Shown here piece by piece: positions 37,407 through 56,437 of a DNA stretch of 64,000 nucleotides. Positions within the stretch are counted from its first letter, which is position 1. Every line of letters begins with the position of its first letter. This DNA is from Owenia fusiformis (Eukaryota; Annelida; Polychaeta; Sabellida; Oweniidae), in the NCBI GenBank assembly GCA_903813345.2, contig CAIIXF020000011.1, forward strand, positions 28,326,166 through 28,390,165, in the 5' to 3' direction. A program made the position numbers and the translations under genes. The notes under the pieces were generated by a model. That model had not been told where the DNA came from. It searched no databases and saw only the letters and a list, made by a program, of their open reading frames with translations.

Positions 37407-37799
37407 ATGGATTACGACCAGCTTCTGAAGAAATATATCGGCGAGATGGGACTTTATCAAGCTTGGGTACTTTTTCTGATGGGTTGCTTGGGGACAGGAG
37501 CGTTATACTCTAATGTAAGCATTGTATTCCTTGCAGCTGTTCCCGTTCACAGTTGTCTTATACCTGAACTCACATCTGCAAATCTCTCCCGTGACGTCAT
37601 AAATAGCGTCAGTATCCCACTTACCGAGGAAGGGGATTATGCAACATGTCGAAAATATGACAGAGATTATACAAATGTGTCCATGGAAACGTTGAAACAA
37701 TGGATAAATGAAACAACACGTAAAACTGAACTAAGAACGATACCCTGCGATGCGTTTTACTACGATACTTCACAGTATATTACAACTATTGTGTCCAAG
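37407..37799 (+). CDS. SLC22 gene exon 1
   Basis: 393 nt (131 codons), ATG in AACAATGGATT, donor CCAAG|GTAAGT in phase 0. MDYDQLLKKYIG, then TM1 and the first outer loop with SCLIPEL, ATCRKYD and IPCDAFYY. The methionine at 37407 is chosen because the paralogue has the same MD(Y/F)DQL start and an equally long exon. Confidence 0.9.
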
Positions 37800-37814
37800 G
37801 TAAGTCCTACCTTG

Positions 37815-38190
37815 TATTCGCGAATGCAACTTTCGGCTGTCGGCTACCGGATTGGCATACTATTTCATGACAAACTCATTTAGATATTAATAGTATCTGC
37901 CACTATTCCATACATATCTAAATTAGTTTGCCATAAAAAGTAGGTTAATCCGGTAGTCGCTAGTCGTTAGTTGCATTCCCGAATAGTACCCCAGTTATCA
38001 ATTGTGCTGCAATTAAAATGCCGAATGCAACTTTTAGCTATTGGCTACCGGATTAACCTACTATATTTCACCACTATTCCATTCATATTTAAATGAGTTG
38101 ATCATAAAAGAGAGGGTTAATTCGGTGGCCGTAACCGAAAGTTGCATTCACGAGTACTAGCCCAGTTATAAATTGAGCTGCAATTGAACT
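37815..38190. mobile_element. Tandemly duplicated short MITE in SLC22 intron 1
   Basis: Two successive units, each a foldback (CGAATGCAACTTT at the left, AGTTGCATTC at the right, inner GGCTACCGGATT and its inverse), at about 37815-37988 and 38018-38158. Each is followed by CCAGTTAT-AATTG-GCTGCAATT, so the flank was duplicated together with the element. Confidence 0.7.
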
Positions 38191-38429
38191 GACAGTTTTA
38201 CGTACCCATAGATCGAACTCAGTCGTGACCAGAATACATTCCTACAATATAAACTACAACTAGATCATGACTAACACTGGAGCAAATACCAACGAGGATA
38301 GAGAATGGACGTACTGGATATTTTAATTGCTTACTAAAGTCCAACTTTGGATTCAAGCTATGGTAGCTTCACATATAAACTATATAATGTCATGAAATGG
38401 ATCAACAAAAATATAATGATTGCTTACCC

Positions 38430-39222
38430 CCCTATCACACCAAACTAGTTCCTACCCGTTCTTGCCAGTCCTACGAAAACGTCGTAAAACGGGCTCAATC
38501 TGGCTGTGGTCGGGAAATATGTCTGAAATAATTAGCTTTTTCGTTCTTAAACAGTCTTCAATACGTCCATATCGTTCGCAGTTCGTTCAGGTCGCACCAC
38601 GTCGTTGTGCAACGCCGTAGAACGCGTCCCTTAGTCTAGAAGGTCAACATGACCTGACTACAGAACGGTATGGTCGCCATCGAATTTTGAATCGATTCAA
38701 AATTCTAAAATCACATTCCCGTCTGAGAACGTTCATAAAGTTTGTAAATAGACCTTAGAAAGTTGCAGCTACGTTCATTCCGTTCGCACACAGTTTAAAA
38801 CCAGTTTTGAAGAACGCAGTGGCAACTTGTTTGGTGTGATAGCTATATTTTTGCTAACTCGTTCATAAACAGTGTTAAATACGTTCTTAATCAGTTTAAA
38901 CCCGTTTGCAATTAGTTCTATCTCGTTCTCAACACGTCCTCAGACAGTTCAACTCGTTGTTAAAACGTCCCTAGTAGGATTGAAGTACGACGGTTCCGTT
39001 CGTAGTACGTCCAGCTCGTCGTTAGTACGTTGTCACTCGTTCTAACTGTAGAACGTGACGACCACGAGAACATTTTCAGCATTGTCTAAGTTCTAGAGGA
39101 CCTACCCGTTCGATTACGTTCGATGAAGTTTGTAAATAGATCCCAAACGGTTCTTAGAAGGTCCAGTCCGTTCGTACACAGTTGGAGAACGTAGTGAGAA
39201 CTAGTTTGGTGTGATAGTAGGG
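38430..39222. mobile_element. Foldback-type element with helically phased GTTC array
   Basis: Ends CTATCACACCAAACTAGTTC and the inverse GAACTAGTTTGGTGTGATAG. An internal end-like GTTTGGTGTGATAGC at about 38829 suggests a nested or composite structure. The interior is dense in GTTC/GTCC-type tetramers at about 10-11 bp intervals, clearest at 38861-38970. No transposase. Confidence 0.75.
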
Positions 39223-39399
39223 TTAGAAGAGACGATTCTTGAACATGCTTCGACTTACCTGTCAAAAAGTTGTTTAAAGACAAATGACATGCATGTACAT
39301 GTTTTAATGGCCAAGTGCTATATTTTTAAGATTATGATAACCTTGTCTTCTCCCCATTGATCGATCCGCCAAATTGATCAGAATTGAAGTTATTTCTAC

Positions 39400-39790
39400 C
39401 ATTTTTAAAAAAGTTAGATAAAGGAGTACTTTTTGAAATAAGAAAAAAATTCATTCATCGTGTCTATAAAGTTCACTCTCCGAGTCAGCATGATTTCATT
39501 AATAGTTTTAGCGATAAGTCTTTGCAAAGCAATATTTGGCAGTACTCGATAAGTTATCAAAGTCGGCTATTTCTAAAGCACATGCTTCCATACGGGCGTG
39601 ATGATTGTCAACGTGCAAGGGGCAGTCAATGAGGATGTGGATTTCATCTTCCACACTCTGGTTGCATCTGCATAATCTGTCGTTCAGTTCTATACCTGTG
39701 AATCGACAAGTTTCAATTCTTATTGGGGGGGTTCCTGATCGAATACGTGCCAAGTAACTGAAACAGGTTTTAGGTATTCATATACATTAA
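39400..39790 (-). mobile_element. Non-LTR retrotransposon fragment (end of reverse transcriptase ORF)
   Basis: The minus strand reads SYLARIRSGTPPIRIETCR, RLCRCNQSVEDEIHILIDCP, the C-terminal zinc-knuckle-like segment typical of LINE ORF2 proteins (L-x-R-x-R-x-G ... C-x-C ... V-E-D-E-x-H-x-L-x-x-C-P). Beyond the stop at 39508 the coding-like text continues in another frame to about 39400. Truncated and frameshifted. Confidence 0.7.
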
Positions 39791-41069
39791 AGGTACAAAC
39801 TTCATTTTTATATCACATTGATTTAGGTTTTAAGATATATGTTATTGTTCTATACATTTGATGTACATCATTTCTATTCTTTATTCTCCTTAAGTCCACT
39901 TGCACTCAATACGTGATATCATTCATAAATAACATTAAAATCTTGGCTCTTTTCATTGTTATGTCTTTTCTATCAGGAAAGTTCCAATTCCCATAAAGGA
40001 GGATTTTAAGTCCAGTATATTTTACTTTACTACATAATCTACTTGTCTTTCTATTGGTTCAAATGTTGGTTCCTTTTGGGACGACGTAAAGGAATAAATA
40101 TGATCCATGCAGCTACGATCGCCTCCAAAACCGTTTTGATGATCACTTAGTTTTCGATTAATCTAAAACCATCGGATGAGTCGTGTTTTGAGTACGGTAA
40201 AGTATATTTTGCAAAAAAGACAAATGCCGCGTTAATTCATTGGTACCTTACTGTCCCCGAATTTGAAGATGGGGTGGATAATTCCTTGATTTTCCTTGAT
40301 ATTTTTACATATTGAAGATTTAAATGTCCTTTTTTGAATATTCATAAATTAATTTGGGTGCTATTTTGTACATTAAAAAAAATTATCAGCCCAGTAGGCT
40401 GATGCACTTCGTTCTCCAAAGCGAGACTTATCTTTTCTTGCATCACTGACATCTCCAAATAAGCAGCATTCGAGTAACGAAAATAAATTGTTTGAAAAAC
40501 TTATGTTTTGTAAAAATGACCTGGCTTGCCTTCCGGCAATGACAACCGCTGTATTCAATACATAGGGGAATTAAAGGTTAGAACTAATTTGGGCTCAAAT
40601 CGTTCCTTGTTAGGCCCACATATTTTTGATGGATTCCCAGAGTTACTTCATTCAATAAATTTTAAATACTAAAAATGGATGTCCAAATTACCCTCTCTCC
40701 CTCTCTCTCTTTGAACATGTTGAAGGCAAATTCAAGTTGTATGAAATAATCAAAGAAAATGTTTAAATCAAATTATTCGCACTATTAGCCAATATATTGA
40801 TATTTACAATTCTTTGATTTATTTCATGTTTCTTAGGATTTAATAATTAATAATAGGTAGTATCAAATCTAGCCTGGTCTTTGAAAACTCTCGGAAGTTC
40901 ATGATCAAGCAAGTATTCAGAGTACCCTTGAAAAAATTGTTCCAATTTAAAAATATATTCTTCATAATTGGTGTCTCAAAATGCAATAAATTGATGCATC
41001 AAACATTGAAAAACAGGTGGGAAAAGGGGTGGAAATCAGGACTTTTCAGAGAAGGTATGTTGATGAGGT

Positions 41070-41435
41070 GTTTTCTTTTTTCACGAGTTGTATACAAAAT
41101 CTTCACGATCTTTTCGGCACAAACATGTATCAGCACCATATGTTCGTGTAAAGCTAATAATTTGTGAACGAATAGTTCACAAGGCGCCAGAATTAAAACA
41201 ATTATTCACTATCATTACGTAAACAGAACGGTTAAAAGTGCAGATTTGTTTCATGATTCTGTCATCTCGTGAATTGTTTGTTCGCAAACGTTAAGATTTT
41301 CTAAAACAAATGATGCCGACACACATTTTTGCCAAAAAGGATTTGGAGATCCTGTCTACATCTTGAGAAATCTTGGAAAAAGCAAAATCGTACCTTCGTA
41401 GTTGCGACATTTTGTTACGAAAACGGATTAATTTT
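41070..41435. mobile_element. Diverged copy of the foldback family that splits SLC22 exon 6
   Basis: Same order of landmarks as 44413-44949: a CACGAGTTGTA-type segment, GGCACAAACATGTATCAGCA, TAAACAGAACGGTTAAAAGTG, GTTTGTTCGCAAACGT, AATCGTACCTTC and GACATTTTGTTACGAAAACG. The outer ends have decayed. It lies in intron 1 of the SLC22 gene. Confidence 0.65.
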
Positions 41436-41613
41436 GAAAAGTTACTCAACAGTGTCCCGGGAGCTTGGTTAATCTTTTTAATAAAATACTGATGAACAAA
41501 TGTATTGTAATAAAAAATTGGAACCATCCGCTTGAAAAGCTTCTAAAACTACTGATGATTATTCCATATTAAATGTAAAATTTCCCAAATAGACACTAGA
41601 CCTCATGACTAGA

Positions 41614-41832
41614 CACACTGGGGATCAACTGGAAACGTAGACATGGTGGGTTCGTTTCATCATGGTGGTTTCCCAGGGGAATTGATTAGAATTTATGTTT
41701 TCTATATTGTACCACAAATTTCATCTGGTAATTCTTCTACCGGAAGTCCGGCCATGCTGAAACCATGGGCTTTCAAGCCCATGCTGAAACGAAGACATGT
41801 CGATGTCTTCGTTTCCAGATGATCCTCAGTGT
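41614..41832. mobile_element. Foldback MITE (219 bp) in SLC22 intron 1
   Basis: Ends ACACTGGGGATCAACTGGAA and TTCCAGATGATCCTCAGTGT, with inner arm ACGTAGACATG / CATGTCTTCG. It also holds two small perfect hairpins (ATGGGCTTTCAAGCCCAT and GAAGACATGTCGATGTCTTC). The outer ACACTG-GGATCA is similar to the end of the 44413 element, which suggests related families. Confidence 0.7.
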
Positions 41833-42030
41833 AAACAGGCATTTACATTACGCAATGTTACCACCTAAGTGATGAGAATGTGATGAAGGAAAGGTGTGTC
41901 AATCAGGTTCTACATCGAATGTTTTGCACAGGAATGCATTTTATGAAGTGATCCAAACCACACGTACGTGTATACGATAAAAAATTGTAAATTGTAAATG
42001 TACTCACAATATACACTTGTGGTAATATTT

Positions 42031-42070
42031 AGGATACAATACAACAATACAATACAATACAATACAATAA
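42031..42070. repeat. CAATA microsatellite
   Basis: About six tandem copies of AATAC/CAATA, starting imperfectly and ending before AAGATAGATG. Intronic. Confidence 0.85.
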
Positions 42071-42174
42071 GATAGATGAGTACTTTCGGACCTTATATTA
42101 TAATTTTTTAAAACATTGATTGCCATCATTTACTATTGTAATCAATCCATGAAGGTTAAACTTTCTAATTTCAG

Positions 42175-42278
42175 TGGAATCTTGTTTGTGACAGAAAATG
42201 GATGATTGCTCTTGTACAGTCTATATATATGGGAGGTATCCTGGTAGGTGCAGTTACCGCAGGCCAATTATCAGACAG
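42175..42278 (+). CDS. SLC22 gene exon 2
   Basis: 104 nt, acceptor TAATTTCAG|, donor GACAG|GTAACC, enters phase 0 and leaves phase 2. WNLVCDRKWMIALVQSIYMG (TM2 entry), GILVGAVTAGQLSD: the family's hallmark segment before the D-R-x-G-R-R signature. Confidence 0.92.
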
Positions 42279-42700
42279 GTAACCTCTTCTTACATTTTCG
42301 AAACTCCAAATCTCCCATTGGACCATTTGGCAGAGTATGTCTGTATTTTGCGATTCTGAAAATTTCGTCGAAATCGTATTAATTGTAGTAGGACCTCGCT
42401 TATTGTTACTGATGAAAAAATATTCTAAACATGGCAGTCGCGTCACCAAACTTGTGGAGAGTTCTAGTACTGTTGTCACAGTTAAATAATATATCCTGTT
42501 CAAATTTTGCACTGCTTATAATATATTCCAAATCACCTGTATCCACCTGATTACTAGGACGGTCCTACCTTGTAACAAAATGGAAAATATCTTCCAGAAA
42601 AGAGTAGAAGCAAAAAACTGATGAAAACAACCAATCCATTTTTCTTTCCCGGATGTTCTTCCATTTTGTCACGGCTAAACAGATTTTGATTGATTTTCAG

Positions 42701-42855
42701 ATTTGGCAGACGCCCCGTCCTTTGTGTCTGTATTGTATTAACAGTGATCTCATCCTATGTGGTAGCATTTTCACCCAATTTCATCATCTTCGCTATCCTT
42801 AGATTTTGTCTAGCAACATTCAGCATGGGTGCATATACAGTTGCATTTGTCGTTA
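42701..42855 (+). CDS. SLC22 gene exon 3
   Basis: 155 nt, acceptor GATTTTCAG|, donor GTTA|GTATGT. Completes the signature as RFGRRPVL and encodes TM3 (CVCIVLTVISSYVVAF) and TM4 (IIFAILRFCLATFSMGAYT). Open frame continuing past the donor is intron. Confidence 0.88.
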
Positions 42856-42996
42856 GTATGTACTGTTCACAATTTCTATATATTCAGACATTGTATCGTA
42901 TAGTTCAGCTCTTGTATTTCATCATAGCGAGGTTGATTTGTGAAAGGATAACATTGAATGTAATTTTATTTTGTTACCATGACCTACTTTATCTAG

Positions 42997-43165
42997 ACAT
43001 GGAGATAGTTGGCCCTTCTTGGAGGAATACTGCGGGACTAATAATGCAGCACACATGGGCACTGGGCTACCTTGTCCTGGCGGGTATCGCGTATGGAATT
43101 CGTGATTGGATTACACTGCAGCTTGTTCTGTCTGTGCCAATAACACTATACTTGCTGCTAATTTT
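42997..43165 (+). CDS. SLC22 gene exon 4
   Basis: 169 nt, acceptor TTATCTAG|, donor TTTT|GTAAGT, leaves phase 2. MEIVGPSWRNTAGLIMQ, ALGYLVLAGIAYGIRDW, QLVLSVPITLYLLL: TM5 and TM6, with the E-x-V-G-P-x-x-R motif usual after TM4 in SLC22 proteins. A TTTG microsatellite follows in the intron (about 43181-43230). Confidence 0.9.
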
Positions 43166-43853
43166 GTAAGTTTCTGTTTACTTGTTTGTTTGTTTGTTTG
43201 TTTGTCCATCCGTTTGTTTCTTTGTTTGTGATGAGATTCCATACGATGCCGTCTAGTGTGGATTCACATTTTATCACGACATTCACGAGTCGTCTAAAAC
43301 AGTCAATTTGACTCCATCCATCCTTGCTGCAAATGTATGTAACTGAATTTAAGCATAAATGGAGTCATTTGAAGAAGGATGACTCCCTTAAGCTTATATT
43401 AAGGCAGATAATTAAGTTTGCACGTTTACAATTATTTAAGGATTTAAGCCTCTCGAAAATGAGATATATTTTTTTGCAATTTATATGGTGCAATCTAATA
43501 GTCAATGAAATGTTTTAAAGTGTATTGATGTTTTTAGATGAAAACCAAAGCGAAATGCATGAAAAAACTCCCCGAATTCATTCTACAAACAACTCACGGT
43601 CACTTACATGTTAAGCCCTAAAAGTAGTATTTTCTTTACAGACTATGCAAATGAAAATTCAAACATAAATAGGCCTTGGCACATTATCCAATGGGGGAGT
43701 TAGGGTTGCCAGACCTATGGGGGGGGGGGGTGTAAATTCTTTTCACAGAAAATATTTTATACAATATCTCTAAAATATTCCTGCTGCTGTTACTCCCAAA
43801 TTTTAAGAGACTGGAGAATCCACGATGATCAAAAATTGGATTTCTTTCTCCAG

Positions 43854-43980
43854 CGTTGTCCCGGAGTCTCCTAGATGGCTGTATGCCAACAATCAGTCTA
43901 CCAAGGCAGATGCGATCGTGCAGAAGATCGCAAGATGGAATAAAGTGAATGTTCCCGAAAAACTCACAATCGAGAACAGG
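43854..43980 (+). CDS. SLC22 gene exon 5
   Basis: 127 nt, acceptor TTTCTCCAG|, donor ACAGG|GTAAGT, leaves phase 0. FVVPESPRWLYANNQ is the conserved PESPRWL after TM6. The rest (KIARWNKVNVPEKLTIENR) is the central cytoplasmic loop. Confidence 0.92.
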
Positions 43981-44215
43981 GTAAGTAAATAGAGGAGATC
44001 CAATGATTTTTGAGGGATATCATTTTTATCCGCCATGAGCGTATGTCGCCCATCTCTGCTAGTGAACGCAGTGAATGAGTGGAGATGGGTGATATCCACA
44101 AGTGGATAAAAATGATAGCCCGAAGCAAGTAGAATTACAAGTAGAATTACAAAACCTAAAAATGTAACATTTAAACAAGTGAACAGCAAATAATTGAAAA
44201 ACAAGCCCTATATTC

Positions 44216-44290
44216 TTAAAGGGGTATTCCTTGCAAGACCATTTCTGTCCTGATATGGTTTCATATGGTATATACACTTGCAATTTTTAA
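44216..44290. repeat. Fragment of the 52-kb foldback element
   Basis: TTAAAGGGGTATTCCTTGCA, GACCATTTCTGTCC and a following TTTCATATGG match the left end of the element at 52263-52869. Only one end is present. Confidence 0.55.
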
Positions 44291-44373
44291 CTCTGTACAC
44301 TTTGTAACTACCTCGACACAAACTGTTCAATTGTATATAATAAGTAAAATAATGTAAAGATTTACTTTTTCAG

Positions 44374-45001
44374 TTGATGGATGAGGAAAAAAAATATTTC
44401 ATTGATCTAGTACACTGGTGATCCACTCGATTACGCTGGTTACCAAAACGAACCGTTTTGGTAACAAAATGTCGGAACGTCGAAGGCACGATTTTTCTTT
44501 TTTTCTTATTTCACGCGTTGTAGGCAGAATCCCCGCGACGTTTTTTCTCACAAAGTACATCAGTATCATATGTTTTAGAAAATGTACATGTTTGCGAAAA
44601 AATAGCTCAGAGGACAACAGAATCGTCGATTTACTTCCTCACTTAAGTTACATAAACGGTTTTTCGAAAAACAGTTAAGATCTGCACTTTTAACCCAAAC
44701 CGTTTATGTAACTTAAGTGAGGAAGTAAATCGACGATTCTGTTGTCTTCTGAACTATTTGTTCGCAAATATGTACACTTTCTTAAACATATGATACTGAT
44801 ACACGTTTGTGTTAAAAAATGTCGTGGGAATTCTGCCTACAACGTGTTAAATAAGGAAACGAGAAAAATCGTACCTTCCGGATGTTCCGACATTTTGTTA
44901 CCAAAACGGTTCGTTTTGGTAACCAGCGTAATCGAGTGGATCACCAGTGTAGTACGTACGCCAGTTTTACGAAAGAGGGCGCTTATTATGTTTAATGCAT
45001 G
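44374..45001 (+). pseudogene. SLC22 gene exon 6, interrupted
   Basis: The first part (44374-44412) encodes LMDEEKKYFIDLV, then come 537 bp of palindromic element and one extra TAGTA; the second part (44955-45001) encodes RTPVLRKRALIMFNA with donor GCATG|GTAAGT. Removing 44413-44954 gives a perfect 86-nt exon with the R-T-P-x-L-R-K-R segment that leads into TM7 in SLC22 transporters. Skipping the exon would shift the frame. Confidence 0.88.
44413..44949. mobile_element. 537-bp foldback element inserted in SLC22 exon 6
   Basis: Palindromic over nearly its whole length (centre about 44680). Ends CACTGGTGATCCACTCGATT and its exact inverse, flanked on both sides by TAGTA, a 5-bp target-site duplication. 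The arms hold ATGTCGGAACGTCG, a CACGCGTTGTAGGCAGAAT-type segment and GAGGAAGTAAATCGACGATT. No transposase. The close match of its outer arms and the intact target duplication indicate a fairly recent insertion. Diverged relatives are at 41070 and 48725. Confidence 0.93.
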
Positions 45002-45007
45002 GTAAGT

Positions 45008-45174
45008 TAATCAAGACTCGGTCGCATTTGCTCTAAGACGGGTGTATGGCGTAGCCTCACTTAATCGATATAGAAAGTCTACATCATACTGCTTATCCCT
45101 GTACACATTTCTCTTGAATCTGGGAAGCTACGGCCTTCGTATGATTGTCGTAGATCAAGTGTGACTGGCATTAG
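45008..45174. mobile_element. MITE family 1 copy in SLC22 intron 6
   Basis: Ends ACTCGGTCGCATTTGCTCTA and GTAGATCAAGTGTGACTGGC, inner TCTACATCATACTGCTTATC. Orientation as in the 52911 copy and opposite to the 20435 and 22776 copies. Confidence 0.72.
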
Positions 45175-45294
45175 ACTGTATGTAGGCTCTCAGAATGGGT
45201 ATTTTTTAGAAACTAATATATATTATGCTTGACAGGCTGACTTATAACATCCGAATGGATTTCACAAAACGATGAGAGACCTTTCATATTTTAG

Positions 45295-45509
45295 GTTTGT
45301 GGTTTCTATGGTATACTTTGGACTCTCTCTTAATACATCTAATCTTGGTGGGGATCCCTATATTAACTTCCTCATATCGGGAGTCATCGAGATCCCGTCA
45401 TACTTTATGGCACAATTTCTGTTCTGGAAGCTGGGAAGAAGGTATTCTCTGTGTGGGGTTTTATTATTTGGTGGTGTTGCGTTACTTTGCATCATGGCCG
45501 TGCCTAAAG
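45295..45509 (+). CDS. SLC22 gene exon 7
   Basis: 215 nt, acceptor ATATTTTAG|, donor TAAAG|GTAAGT, leaves phase 1. Encodes TM7 (FVVSMVYFGLSLNTSNLGG), TM8 (INFLISGVIEIPSYFMAQF), the LGRRYSL loop (second-half counterpart of the G-R-R signature) and TM9. Confidence 0.92.
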
Positions 45510-45545
45510 GTAAGTGATGTTTACAATCTAATTATTAGACATATA

Positions 45546-46019
45546 CAGGGTGAGCCAAAAAAGGCAACCCAAACAAATGTTAATAACTCAGTCATCCAGC
45601 ATGGGTTTAAACTCATATTTAATACAATTGTACCTTCTTTAATGTACTTTCATTCTGATCATTCATTTGTTCTCGCTCCTGGAGGCAAACTTGAACGTGT
45701 CGGGTGAAGTAGCTCTGACTACACGCTCACAGATATCTTGTGTGATGGCTCTCATGTTACTCTTGTTTTAACTCTCTGATGCTTCTAGGGTTGTTAGTGT
45801 AGACTATAAAATTCCTTGGGTTCATATTTGGTGATTTTGTCATGTTTTGACAGTTTGAGAACATTTTGTAAAATTGCCCTAAAATAGACCAATGAAACTT
45901 ACTTACTAGAATGAAAAAAAAAATTTGACAATGTTAAATTGTGCTAAATATGACTTTAAACCCATGCTGGATGACTGAGTTATCAACATTTGTTTGAGTT
46001 ACTTTTTTTGGCTCACCCT
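45546..46019. mobile_element. Mariner-like MITE in SLC22 intron 7
   Basis: The left arm CAGGGTGAGCCAAAAAAGGC with TAATAACTCAGTCATCCAGC matches the inverse of the right arm (GGATGACTGAGTTATCAAC, TTTTGGCTCACCCT). The arms are about 85 bp and the 5' flank is TA. The interior has no transposase. Confidence 0.8.
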
Positions 46020-46190
46020 AATATTTGTATTAGTAATACAAATAGTATGAACTAGTTAGTTTGTTCCACCGGAGGACACTTCAATACAAATTGATTTAGA
46101 ATTAATGATATTGATAAACCAACCATCGTTGTACCTCAAATCAGTGACATTAATATAGTTTTGTTCATATTTTTAATGCCAATTTTCAAG

Positions 46191-46372
46191 GTATGATTTT
46201 ATTGAACATCACAATGTCCATGACTGGCAAGTTTATGGTATCTGCTGCATTTGGAATGGTGTACAACTTTGCAGCTGAGATTTTCCCGACACAAATTCGG
46301 AACATTGGGGTTGGAGCATCATCCATGTTTGCTCGTATAGGTGGCATTTTGGCCCCTTATATAGGCCTCTTG
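46191..46372 (+). CDS. SLC22 gene exon 8
   Basis: 182 nt, acceptor ATTTTCAAG|, donor TCTTG|GTAGGT, leaves phase 0. GMILLNITMSMTGKFMVSA (TM10), AAEIFPTQIRNIGVGASSMF (the E-x-F-P-T-x-x-R-N motif of SLC22), RIGGILAPYIGLL (TM11). Confidence 0.93.
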
Positions 46373-47129
46373 GTAGGTTGACTGAAATCCATGGAATCAG
46401 AATAACTTACATATATGCTGATTCACTTTAAAGGTTGACGCATATCGTTTAGCAAATCGAACGCCTGTTTTTGGTGTTGCTCACCGTTTAGTATAAAAGG
46501 CACGATCCGGGATAAAACTCAAGGGTATACCAGGTTTGAGGTCGTGGTGTAAACACCTCTACCTGTTTTTGTAGCAATAGTATAGAATAGATCGTCATAC
46601 ATTTATAAAATAGAGATTTTTGTTTTGACAAATCAATTTCACATTTTATTGGGGAAGTTTAGGACCTTCTATTTGTGAGTAATAGGAGCATTTGACATCT
46701 AAACCCCATCACGTATTAGCACACAACATGGCTTATAAAATGTCCTACAAATGAAGCAAGGCAGTTTGAACGAATACAAGGATTTATGTTGGCTGATGTA
46801 CATGCATCCTTTGGATAATTCACTCTCTTGTTGACAGAAACATTGTAGAATATCATTTTATCTACAAGACGATTTCAATAAACTAGAATTTACAAAACTC
46901 CCCTATTTTTTAAAAATGGACTGATCCAGCTGACTCGCCATATTGTTTTTGTCCGGGAAACTTGACGTAATCCTTTAAACTTTAACGATCCTGTGGTTCA
47001 GTTTTAGTGAAAATTCATCCCCTTGAAATCTCACAATCGATCCTGTCATTTCACCGATGCCCGAACTGTCAAATTATTTATTTTCATATTTAAACCAAAT
47101 CCATAGTGTTGAGTCCTACTCCACTTATA

Positions 47130-47273
47130 TGCCTTGGTCACATTTTCCCCGATTTTAACTACTGCGCCCGGCCGATTGAGTATTTTGTTCAAAATTGAAT
47201 ACAATATTGAACAAAACACTCAATCGACCGGGCGCTAGCCGATGGATCGGAGCAAATGTGACCCAGGCATTAG
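47130..47273. mobile_element. MITE family 2 copy, inverted relative to 33328
   Basis: Same 145-bp palindrome as 33328-33473 read on the other strand: TGCCTTGGTCACATTTTCCC at the left, GCAAATGTGACCCAGGCATT at the right. In intron 8 of the SLC22 gene. Confidence 0.8.
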
Positions 47274-47699
47274 AATATAGTTGAGAGAGCACGTGCTCAT
47301 GATTGTCCATGTGATCATATCTTGCAATTTGATTGGACATCATATAATGGGGGATCCCGAATAAGATAGAATATGAAAGAATTAAGGGAGCTACTCACTT
47401 CTTTGGTACGTGTATGTAGTATACGTCAATTATATTTGTCCTAAATAGCGTGTTCTGATTGGCTGGAATTGGACACACCTTGCCTAGCTATGTGTGAATT
47501 GGTCAAATAATGGTAGCCTATACACCCAAATGACCGACGGCGCGCTACACTGCTAAATACAACGCCTTTTTACCCAATCCATTTTTGAACACCCTGTAGA
47601 CCCAACGCCCAACGCCTTTTTACCCAAACCCGACATCTATTCTTGCTTTTATTAAACATCTTAATGCGTCATTCTTAATCGTTTATACAATTAGCTTAA

Positions 47700-47825
47700 A
47701 TAATATCACATTACAACAAATCAGCACTTGTCACATCACCTTCACTCTTCCCCGCAGCTGTCATCACACATCAGTACTTGTCACATCACCTTCACTCTTC
47801 CCTGCAGCTGTCATCACACATCTTC
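47700..47825. repeat. Short tandem duplication in SLC22 intron 8
   Basis: A unit of about 61 bp (ACATCAGTACTTGTCACATC, ACCTTCACTCTTCCCTGCAG, CTGTCATCACAC) occurs twice side by side at about 47706 and 47767, nearly identical. It does not touch the exon 9 acceptor. Confidence 0.75.
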
Positions 47826-47898
47826 GACTTTAAGGGCGTTGAATAGAGTTTCTGACGCTATTTAATTATATCAAAATGTTGTTTTATCATTCTTCCAG

Positions 47899-48117
47899 CA
47901 AAACACCAACAGGGCTATACCCAATGCCATATTTGGTGCTCTGGCATTAGTGGCAGGTGTACTGGTACTCCTTCTGCCTGAGACAAGAGATAGAGATCTA
48001 CCAGAGACGATAGATGATGCTGAGAACTTTGCAAAGTTTAAAACTGATTACGAAATTGAAAAACACCGAAGTGAAAATAATGAAGCTGGTCTACCATTAC
48101 AAGCAGTCACAATCTGA
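47899..48117 (+). CDS. SLC22 gene exon 9 and stop
   Basis: 219 nt, acceptor TTCTTCCAG|. AIPNAIFGALALVAGVLVLL (TM12), LPETRDRDLPETIDDAENF (conserved after TM12), then a charged tail ending QAVTI and TGA. The final T-I is hydrophobic and might act as a PDZ-type end, but this is only a possibility. Confidence 0.92.
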   Translation, partial: QNTNRAIPNAIFGALALVAGVLVLLLPETRDRDLPETIDDAENFAKFKTDYEIEKHRSENNEAGLPLQAVTI

Positions 48118-48724: not shown

Positions 48725-49075
48725 CGATCCGTTTCGGTAACAAAATGTCGGAGCCTCGAAGTTACGATTTTTCTTTTTTCCTTATTTCACGAGTTGTAGG
48801 CAGAATTCGCACAACTAAACATTTTCATCACTAACGTATGCCATTATCATATAAGAAAATCTACACGTTTGCGAAGAAATAGTTCAGAAGACAACAGAAT
48901 GCGTTTTTGAATTCTGTCATCCCACGAACTATTTTGTGTGAAATCACTTGAATTTCCAGAGACATATTTGTGCCGAAAGATTTGGATGGTTAATGCATCT
49001 CGAGATAATCAAGGAAAATGAAAAATCTTACCGAACTTTCCGACCGGAAGCGTAGCCATCTTGTTACCTTGGAAT
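48725..49075. mobile_element. Third copy of the exon-6 foldback family
   Basis: Left CCGTTTCGGTAACAAAATGTC, CACGAGTTGTAGGCAGAATT, AGTTCAGAAGACAACAGAA. Then an inverted half with TTCTGTCATCCCACGAACTA, GTGCCGAAAGATTTGGATGG and GCCATCTTGTTACC. Diverged and lacking clear ends. Just 3' of the SLC22 gene. Confidence 0.65.
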
Positions 49076-56044: not shown

Positions 56045-56437
56045 ATGGATTTCGACCAACTCATCAAGAAATACATCGGAGAAATGGGACTTTATCAAGC
56101 ATGGGTACTATTCTTGATGGGTTCCTTGGGCGTAGGGATATGTTACGCTAATGTAAGTATCGTGTTCTTAGCAGCTGTTCCCGTTCACAGCTGTCTCATT
56201 CCCGAACTCACATCTGCAAATCTCTCCCGTGATGTCATAAATCGTGTCGGTGTCCCTCTGACGGAGGAAGGAGACTATGCAACATGTCAAAAATATGACA
56301 GGAATTATACATATGTATCCAAGGAATTGCTGAAACAATGGATGAATGAAACAAGGAACGGCACAGAAATTAAGACAGTACCATGTGAAGCTTTCTACTA
56401 CGATACTTCACAATATACATCAAGCATCGTCTCCCAG
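56045..56437 (+). CDS. Second SLC22-family gene, exon 1 (partial gene)
   Basis: 393 nt, exactly the length of exon 1 at 37407 and ending at the same codon position (TCCCAG|GTAATG, phase 0). MDFDQLIKKYIGEMGLYQAW and the outer loop are about 79% identical to the first gene (27 differences in 131 residues by eye). Changes concentrate in TM1 (VGICYA) and the end of the loop (RNGTEIK). The second ATG (ACCATGGATT, a good Kozak context) is chosen over the one at 56024 because of agreement with the paralogue. No exon 2 (WNLVC) is visible by 64000, so the first intron exceeds 7.5 kb or the copy is truncated. Confidence 0.88.

What the first reader, a model, noticed from the sequence alone, without database searches (positions are those of the whole stretch)
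44374..45001. Transposon caught in a coding exon of an SLC22 gene
A 537-bp palindromic element with matching ends and a TAGTA target duplication sits inside exon 6. Taking it out restores an 86-nt exon and a perfect 549-residue transporter; with it, stops follow at once. All eight other exons remain intact, so the event should be recent and possibly polymorphic.
Basis: seen in the sequence. Interest (0 to 1): 0.75.

Follow-up and report, generated by a model that had tools for sequence, protein, structure and literature searches.

The report
Palindromic transposon interrupts a transporter exon
A small, very common, hairpin-shaped jumping gene has landed inside a coding exon of one of two neighbouring copies of a membrane-transporter gene and most likely disables that copy in the sequenced animal, although a test of the RNA is needed to rule out that the cell splices it away.

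Summary
A 537-bp, almost fully palindromic element (44413-44949) with a 5-bp TAGTA target duplication lies in exon 6 of a nine-exon SLC22-type transporter gene. Leaving it out gives an 86-nt exon and a 549-residue open frame; reading through gives V-H-W-stop. It is a real transposon insertion: 39 other full-length copies score 98-99% identical (40 of 2,388 candidates scored), and 77 of 92 sampled loci with both ends have an exact 5-bp duplication. The window copy lies 0.93% from the young consensus.

Its exon 6 is uninterrupted, and the pair shows purifying selection (dN/dS 0.14), so the gene was probably functional until recently and its loss may be buffered.

No standard splice pair removes the insert exactly. 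The element's ends do carry a donor-like GT and an acceptor-like AG; using them would leave 12 nt in frame (+4 residues), as reported for an Aureococcus introner. No RNA data were available. Most likely this is an ordinary non-autonomous DNA-transposon knockout, young enough to be polymorphic (untested). The introner-like reading stays open at low probability. No autonomous partner was found.

The parts
44413..44949 (+). palindromic non-autonomous DNA transposon (MITE/foldback type), 537 bp, ends CACTGGTGATCC...GGATCACCAGTG
44408..44412 (+). target-site duplication, left copy TAGTA
44950..44954 (+). target-site duplication, right copy TAGTA
44374..45001 (+). exon 6 with the insert (628 nt; 86 nt without it)
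37407..48117 (+). SLC22-type transporter gene: exons 37407-37799, 42175-42278, 42701-42855, 42997-43165, 43854-43980, 44374-45001, 45295-45509, 46191-46372, 47899-48117
44415..44423 (+). donor-like site in the left end, CTG|GTGATC; an intron would start at 44418
   Evidence: score from a recalled weight matrix
44928..44950 (+). acceptor-like site in the right end, ATCACCAG|TG; an intron would end at 44947; few pyrimidines
44907..44929 (+). second acceptor-like site, GGTAACCAG|CG; an intron would end at 44926
56045..56437 (+). exon 1 of the tandem paralogue (an in-frame ATG 21 nt upstream could also be the start); the rest lies beyond the window (G000:C11 up to about 28400197)

Best explanation
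A non-autonomous, palindromic cut-and-paste DNA transposon (MITE/foldback type), moved in trans by a transposase encoded elsewhere, inserted with a 5-bp stagger into exon 6 of one of two tandem SLC22-type genes. Shown: the insertion, its TSD, its family, the broken frame, the uninterrupted paralogue. Inferred: transcripts that keep exon 6 carry a stop two codons past the left end and a hairpin of about 250 bp, and are degraded or give a protein cut before the second half of the transporter; the paralogue may cover for the loss; the allele may still be segregating.
For: 5-bp TSD and terminal inverted repeats. 39 other full-length copies at 98-99% identity. Exact TSD of 5 bp or more in 39 of 41 copies including the window's in the first sample; exactly 5 bp in 77 of 92 loci with both ends in the wider sample. 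Frame restored by leaving out 542 nt; V-H-W-stop with it. Empty site in the tandem paralogue (FIDLVRTPVLRKRALIMF uninterrupted). dN/dS 0.144 between the two genes over 510 codons. Skipping exon 6 also shifts the frame (stop at codon 329).
Against: No RNA or population data. Donor- and acceptor-like sites in the element's ends could produce in-frame transcripts. No transposase source was found. 10 of 92 sampled loci with both ends show no abutting duplication.
Confidence: 0.82

Rival explanations
1. The element behaves as an intron-like (introner-like) insertion: the spliceosome uses CACTG|GTGATC in the left end and ATCACCAG|TG (or GGTAACCAG|CG) in the right end, leaving 12 nt (7 of the element plus the 5-bp duplication) or 33 nt in frame, so the gene still makes a transporter with 4 or 11 extra residues.
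For: Both sites exist and the products are open: 553 and 560 residues. The left-end donor is the second-best scoring GT inside the interrupted exon (6.02 against 6.23 for the best; real donors of the gene 1.6 to 11.8). 7+5=12 keeps the frame for any 5-bp duplication that makes no stop. The hairpin would bring the two sites together. A PNAS paper reports Aureococcus introners that carry both splice sites and add 12 bp, there 4 from the element and 8 from the TSD (PMC9860276, passages).
Against: The outer acceptor has few pyrimidines (0.43 against 0.64-0.86 in the real ones) and the donor lacks G at +5. Seven donor-acceptor pairs in the exon keep the frame open, five of them other than these two, so in-frame pairs are not rare here. 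No other copy was recognised in a host-gene exon, though that scan was insensitive.
Confidence: 0.08
2. Partial rescue by a chimeric splice: the left-end donor at 44418 joins directly to the real acceptor of exon 7, giving an in-frame 535-residue protein that lacks the stretch before and into transmembrane helix 7.
For: The left end leaves the same codon phase as the real end of exon 6; product open, 535 residues; exon 7 has a normal acceptor.
Against: It competes with the stronger real exon 6 donor (9.63 against 6.02); the lost residues are conserved in the paralogue and largely in OCT2, so the product would probably not work.
Confidence: 0.08
3. Assembly artefact: the repeat was wrongly placed in the exon.
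For: High-copy palindromic repeats are hard to assemble (general knowledge); only one assembly was available.
Against: A locus-specific 5-bp duplication flanks a full-length copy that has one difference seen in none of the 85 other aligned copies; a misjoin would not be expected to make these.
Confidence: 0.02

Closest known systems
MITEs / foldback-type non-autonomous DNA transposons
   Same: short, no transposase, inverted repeats over almost the whole length, mostly constant TSD, many near-identical copies, waves of amplification
   Different: superfamily not established; 5-bp TSD with ends CACTGG...CCAGTG; no autonomous partner found
Introners (PMC9860276; seen as passages)
   Same: non-autonomous DNA element in a coding exon with splice-like sites at its ends and a possible in-frame 12-nt remainder, as in the Aureococcus example
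   Different: no evidence of splicing here, no demonstrated set of such introns; the passages say introners were found in only two animal groups
Transib and other superfamilies with 5-bp TSDs (TSD length and end motif recalled, from no call)
   Same: TSD length; ends start with CAC
   Different: the recalled Transib end CACWRTG is not matched at position 6; RAG1 family search empty, but all 14 controls were empty too
SLC22 organic cation/carnitine transporters
   Same: matches OCT2, OCTN2, OCT3 and OCT1 chains over most of the length
   Different: coding frame interrupted in this copy

Membership tests
MITE / non-autonomous cut-and-paste DNA transposon | terminal inverted repeats | tested here: met
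   outer arms 74 nt including the duplication, 97% complementary
MITE / non-autonomous cut-and-paste DNA transposon | constant-length target-site duplication that differs between copies | tested here: met
   of 92 loci with both ends, 77 exactly 5 bp, 2 with 7, 1 with 6, 2 with 4, 10 with none; 28 further loci lacked a usable pair of ends
MITE / non-autonomous cut-and-paste DNA transposon | many near-identical copies and no transposase of its own | tested here: met
   39 other copies scored, all 98-99%; (stop to stop, 80 aa or more): two stretches of 90 and 94 aa overlap the element, each beginning or ending outside it; they were not searched against families
MITE / non-autonomous cut-and-paste DNA transposon | an autonomous relative with the same ends | tested here: inconclusive
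   none in the stretches read; only part of the genome was read
Transib/RAG superfamily | DDE transposase of the RAG1 type linked to these ends | tested here: inconclusive
   no match, and no match in any of 14 controls
Introner | element is removed from transcripts as an intron | not testable with these tools
   no RNA data
Introner | splice sites at or near the element ends or in the TSD | tested here: inconclusive
   donor moderate, outer acceptor weak
Introner | many copies sit in coding sequence as introns | tested here: inconclusive
   no other host-gene exon recognised; 54 of 69 open stretches scanned, from 48 of 49 loci, out of 92; the window's own case would have been missed (36 aa)
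SLC22 transporter | homology to SLC22 members over most of the length | tested here: met

The most novel reading that the evidence does not exclude
The family is an introner in the making in a marine invertebrate (habitat inferred): its inverted ends carry a donor and an acceptor in both orientations, its 5-bp duplication plus 7 retained bases make 12 nt, and its hairpin pairs the splice sites, so insertions into exons are tolerated as new in-frame introns; the SLC22 exon would be one such newborn intron.
Probability: 0.07. Interest if true: 0.75.

Novelty: new member of a known kind. Interest (0 to 1): 0.32.

Why it matters
As it stands it is a clean case of a young MITE wave breaking a transporter gene that has a close tandem copy. 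If the insert were spliced using its own ends, it would show how a DNA transposon becomes an intron in an animal, where introners have been reported in only two groups (PMC9860276, passages), and RNA-seq across three named junctions could settle it.

Tried and rejected
Exact splicing of the insert: rejected; none of the seven excision frames that restore exon 6 begins and ends with GT-AG, GC-AG or AT-AC.

Exon skipping as a harmless bypass: skipping exon 6 shifts the frame (stop at codon 329); skipping exons 5 and 6 together is in frame (478 residues) but loses 71 residues; skipping 6 and 7 shifts the frame.

Empty allele elsewhere in the assembly: none seen among the 40 of 524 candidates scored; besides the locus itself, one match is the paralogue's exon 5 at 85% and the rest are the repeat in intron 5.

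Autonomous partner: of 28 loci without a usable pair of ends, the three with only 38-65 bp of the family (L078, L102, L107) were extended to 6.5 kb (L124-L126): no second end within 6 mismatches, and a LINE-like frame or tandem repeats in two of them. L051, a tiny copy, was not extended. Of 83 ends with a different base after CTGG, 20 were read; one (L129) left the family after 31 bp and ran into a tandem repeat. L147, its extension, was fetched but not scanned. The RAG1 family search was empty, with empty controls. No hAT or other transposase family was searched for.

Other exon insertions: 69 open stretches of 50 aa or more cross an empty site, from 49 of 92 loci; 54, from 48 loci, were scanned with Pfam. 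One crossing hit is a reverse transcriptase (L003, RVT_1, 2e-14). A sterol-sensing-domain match in L005 (residues 1-38) ends before the junction (near residue 64). Two hits at E 0.04-0.05 lie below their cut-offs (L025, L119). The window's own insertion has only 36 aa across the junction, so this scan would have missed it and says little about short exons.

Species: size and 12 large contigs resemble the annelid Owenia fusiformis (505.8 Mb, 12 chromosome-scale scaffolds; passages of PMC9977687), but G000 is unnamed and this was not tested.

Literature searches (listings only) gave nothing that I used.

Full report
Observation. The window holds a nine-exon gene on the + strand, 37407-48117, whose joined exons (insert left out) give 549 residues. 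Residues 3-522 match SLC22 organic cation and carnitine transporters (OCT2 8et9, E 1.3e-96; OCTN2 9pdq, 4.5e-96; Pfam Sugar_tr and MFS_1). Exon 6 contains a 537-bp element, 44413-44949, flanked by TAGTA. The insertion point follows residue V329, in the stretch FIDLVRTPVLRKR, which is close to FLDLVRTPQIRKH in OCT2 and, from recalled topology, lies just before transmembrane helix 7. Reading through gives V-H-W-stop. The element is almost fully self-complementary and folds as RNA into one long hairpin, -387.5 kcal/mol, z -47.6 against 100 shuffles.

It is a mobile element. In the window's own assembly (G000, 498 Mb) the first look gave 2,388 candidates; 40 were scored, the window's copy and 39 others, all full length and 98-99% identical. 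The 38-base end occurs 727+709 times with up to 2 mismatches, reversed control 0+0. I read 120 loci besides the window: 39 and one (L040), and 80 chosen by the first two bases of the duplication, GC (14) or CA (66). 92 had both ends; 77 of these have an exact 5-bp duplication, 2 have 7, 1 has 6, 2 have 4 and 10 have none; 28 lacked a usable pair. In the 35 copies of the first group with a 5-bp duplication the target is A+T-rich (26, 26, 21, 28 and 27 of 35 at the five positions) in a genome stretch of about 35% G+C, so I claim no target motif.

Age. Of the 52 GC/CA-chosen loci with both ends, 46 of 400-600 bp were aligned: 18 lie at 1.5-3.4% from the young consensus and 28 at 7.8-20%, which suggests an old and a young wave. 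The window copy is at 0.93% (5 of 537; Poisson interval 0.3-2.2%); one of its five differences occurs in none of the 85 other aligned copies, the other four recur in 1 to 19 of them. The consensus was made from the 39 closest copies and the window's own, which favours small values. Two decayed relatives sit in the same window, at 41070-41436 (69-74%) and 48725-48900 (80-81%).

The gene before the insertion. A tandem paralogue starts at window 56045 and runs past the window's end. Its exon 6 is uninterrupted and keeps the same residues around the insertion point; it is one codon longer (89 nt). Over 510 codons (the paralogue's exon 2 was not read, and its extra codon in exon 6 was dropped) dS is 0.70, dN 0.10, ratio 0.144, which fits purifying selection on the pair for most of their separate history; a pairwise ratio cannot say which branch or how lately. 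Exons 3 and 5 stand out with dS 0.24 and 0.39 against 0.68-1.27 in the others, a hint of gene conversion. I give the intact exons little weight for recency: at the copy's divergence a freed gene would carry no nonsense, start or splice-site hit with probability about 0.41, or about 0.09 if frameshifts come at 10% of substitutions, an assumed figure.

How it works. Best supported: a transposase acting in trans cut the target with a 5-bp stagger and pasted in the element (inferred from the TSD); the transcript then carries a stop two codons into the element and should be lost or give a truncated protein (inferred). No standard splice pair restores the exon exactly. Skipping exon 6 shifts the frame; skipping 5 and 6 does not but removes 71 residues.

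The open question. The left end reads CACTG|GTGATC and the right end ATCACCAG|TG. With a recalled donor matrix the former scores 6.0, second of the GT sites inside the interrupted exon; the gene's real donors score 1.6-11.8. Acceptors were judged only by pyrimidine content: 0.43 for the outer site, 0.64 for a second site 21 bases inward, 0.64-0.86 for real ones. Removing 44418-44947 leaves 12 extra nt in frame (553 residues), removing 44418-44926 leaves 33 (560), and joining 44417 to exon 7 gives 535. Seven donor-acceptor pairs in the exon keep the frame open, so frame alone is weak evidence. Since 7 retained bases and a 5-bp duplication make 12, the outer pair keeps frame at any 5-bp insertion whose duplication makes no stop. 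An introner of Aureococcus is reported to carry both sites and add 12 bp, and introners were reported in only two animal groups (PMC9860276, passages). In the two searches with the word introner (9 of 9 listed, 10 of 24 listed) I saw no title or abstract start describing such an element in an annelid. Against it: weak acceptor, no RNA, and no sign that copies crowd into exons, though my scan for that would have missed the present case.

Verdict. A real transposon insertion in a coding exon, ordinary in kind for a genome with hundreds of copies of the family, with a tandem paralogue that may soften its consequence. The superfamily remains open. Polymorphism and splicing are testable and untested.

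Noticed in passing
56045-56437 and beyond the window (G000:C11:28382210-28400197): Tandem paralogue of the SLC22-type gene, 77-85% identical in protein by exon match; exons 3 and 5 have lower dS (0.24, 0.39) than the other exons compared (0.68-1.27), a hint of gene conversion.
   Followed up: partly
43986-44120: Another high-copy repeat in intron 5, about 130 bp, 81-86% identical to 38 other scored genome places and partly self-complementary.
   Followed up: no
45546-46019: Intron 7 holds a stretch with inverted ends CAGGGTGAGCCAAAAAA ... TTTTTTTGGCTCACCCT, probably a different DNA transposon.
   Followed up: no
41070-41436 and 48725-48900: Decayed relatives of the same palindromic family in intron 1 and just downstream of the gene.
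   Followed up: partly
G000, for example C2:16960170-17004028 and C3:33380160-33429483: 33 of the 83 matches to the transporter are nearly full length within one uninterrupted stretch, 30-36% identical (32 without a stop), often in clusters: a large, apparently intronless SLC22-like expansion.
   Followed up: no
L040 (G000:C1:49974114-49975758): A copy of the family 1,245 bp long, interrupted by unrelated sequence.
   Followed up: no
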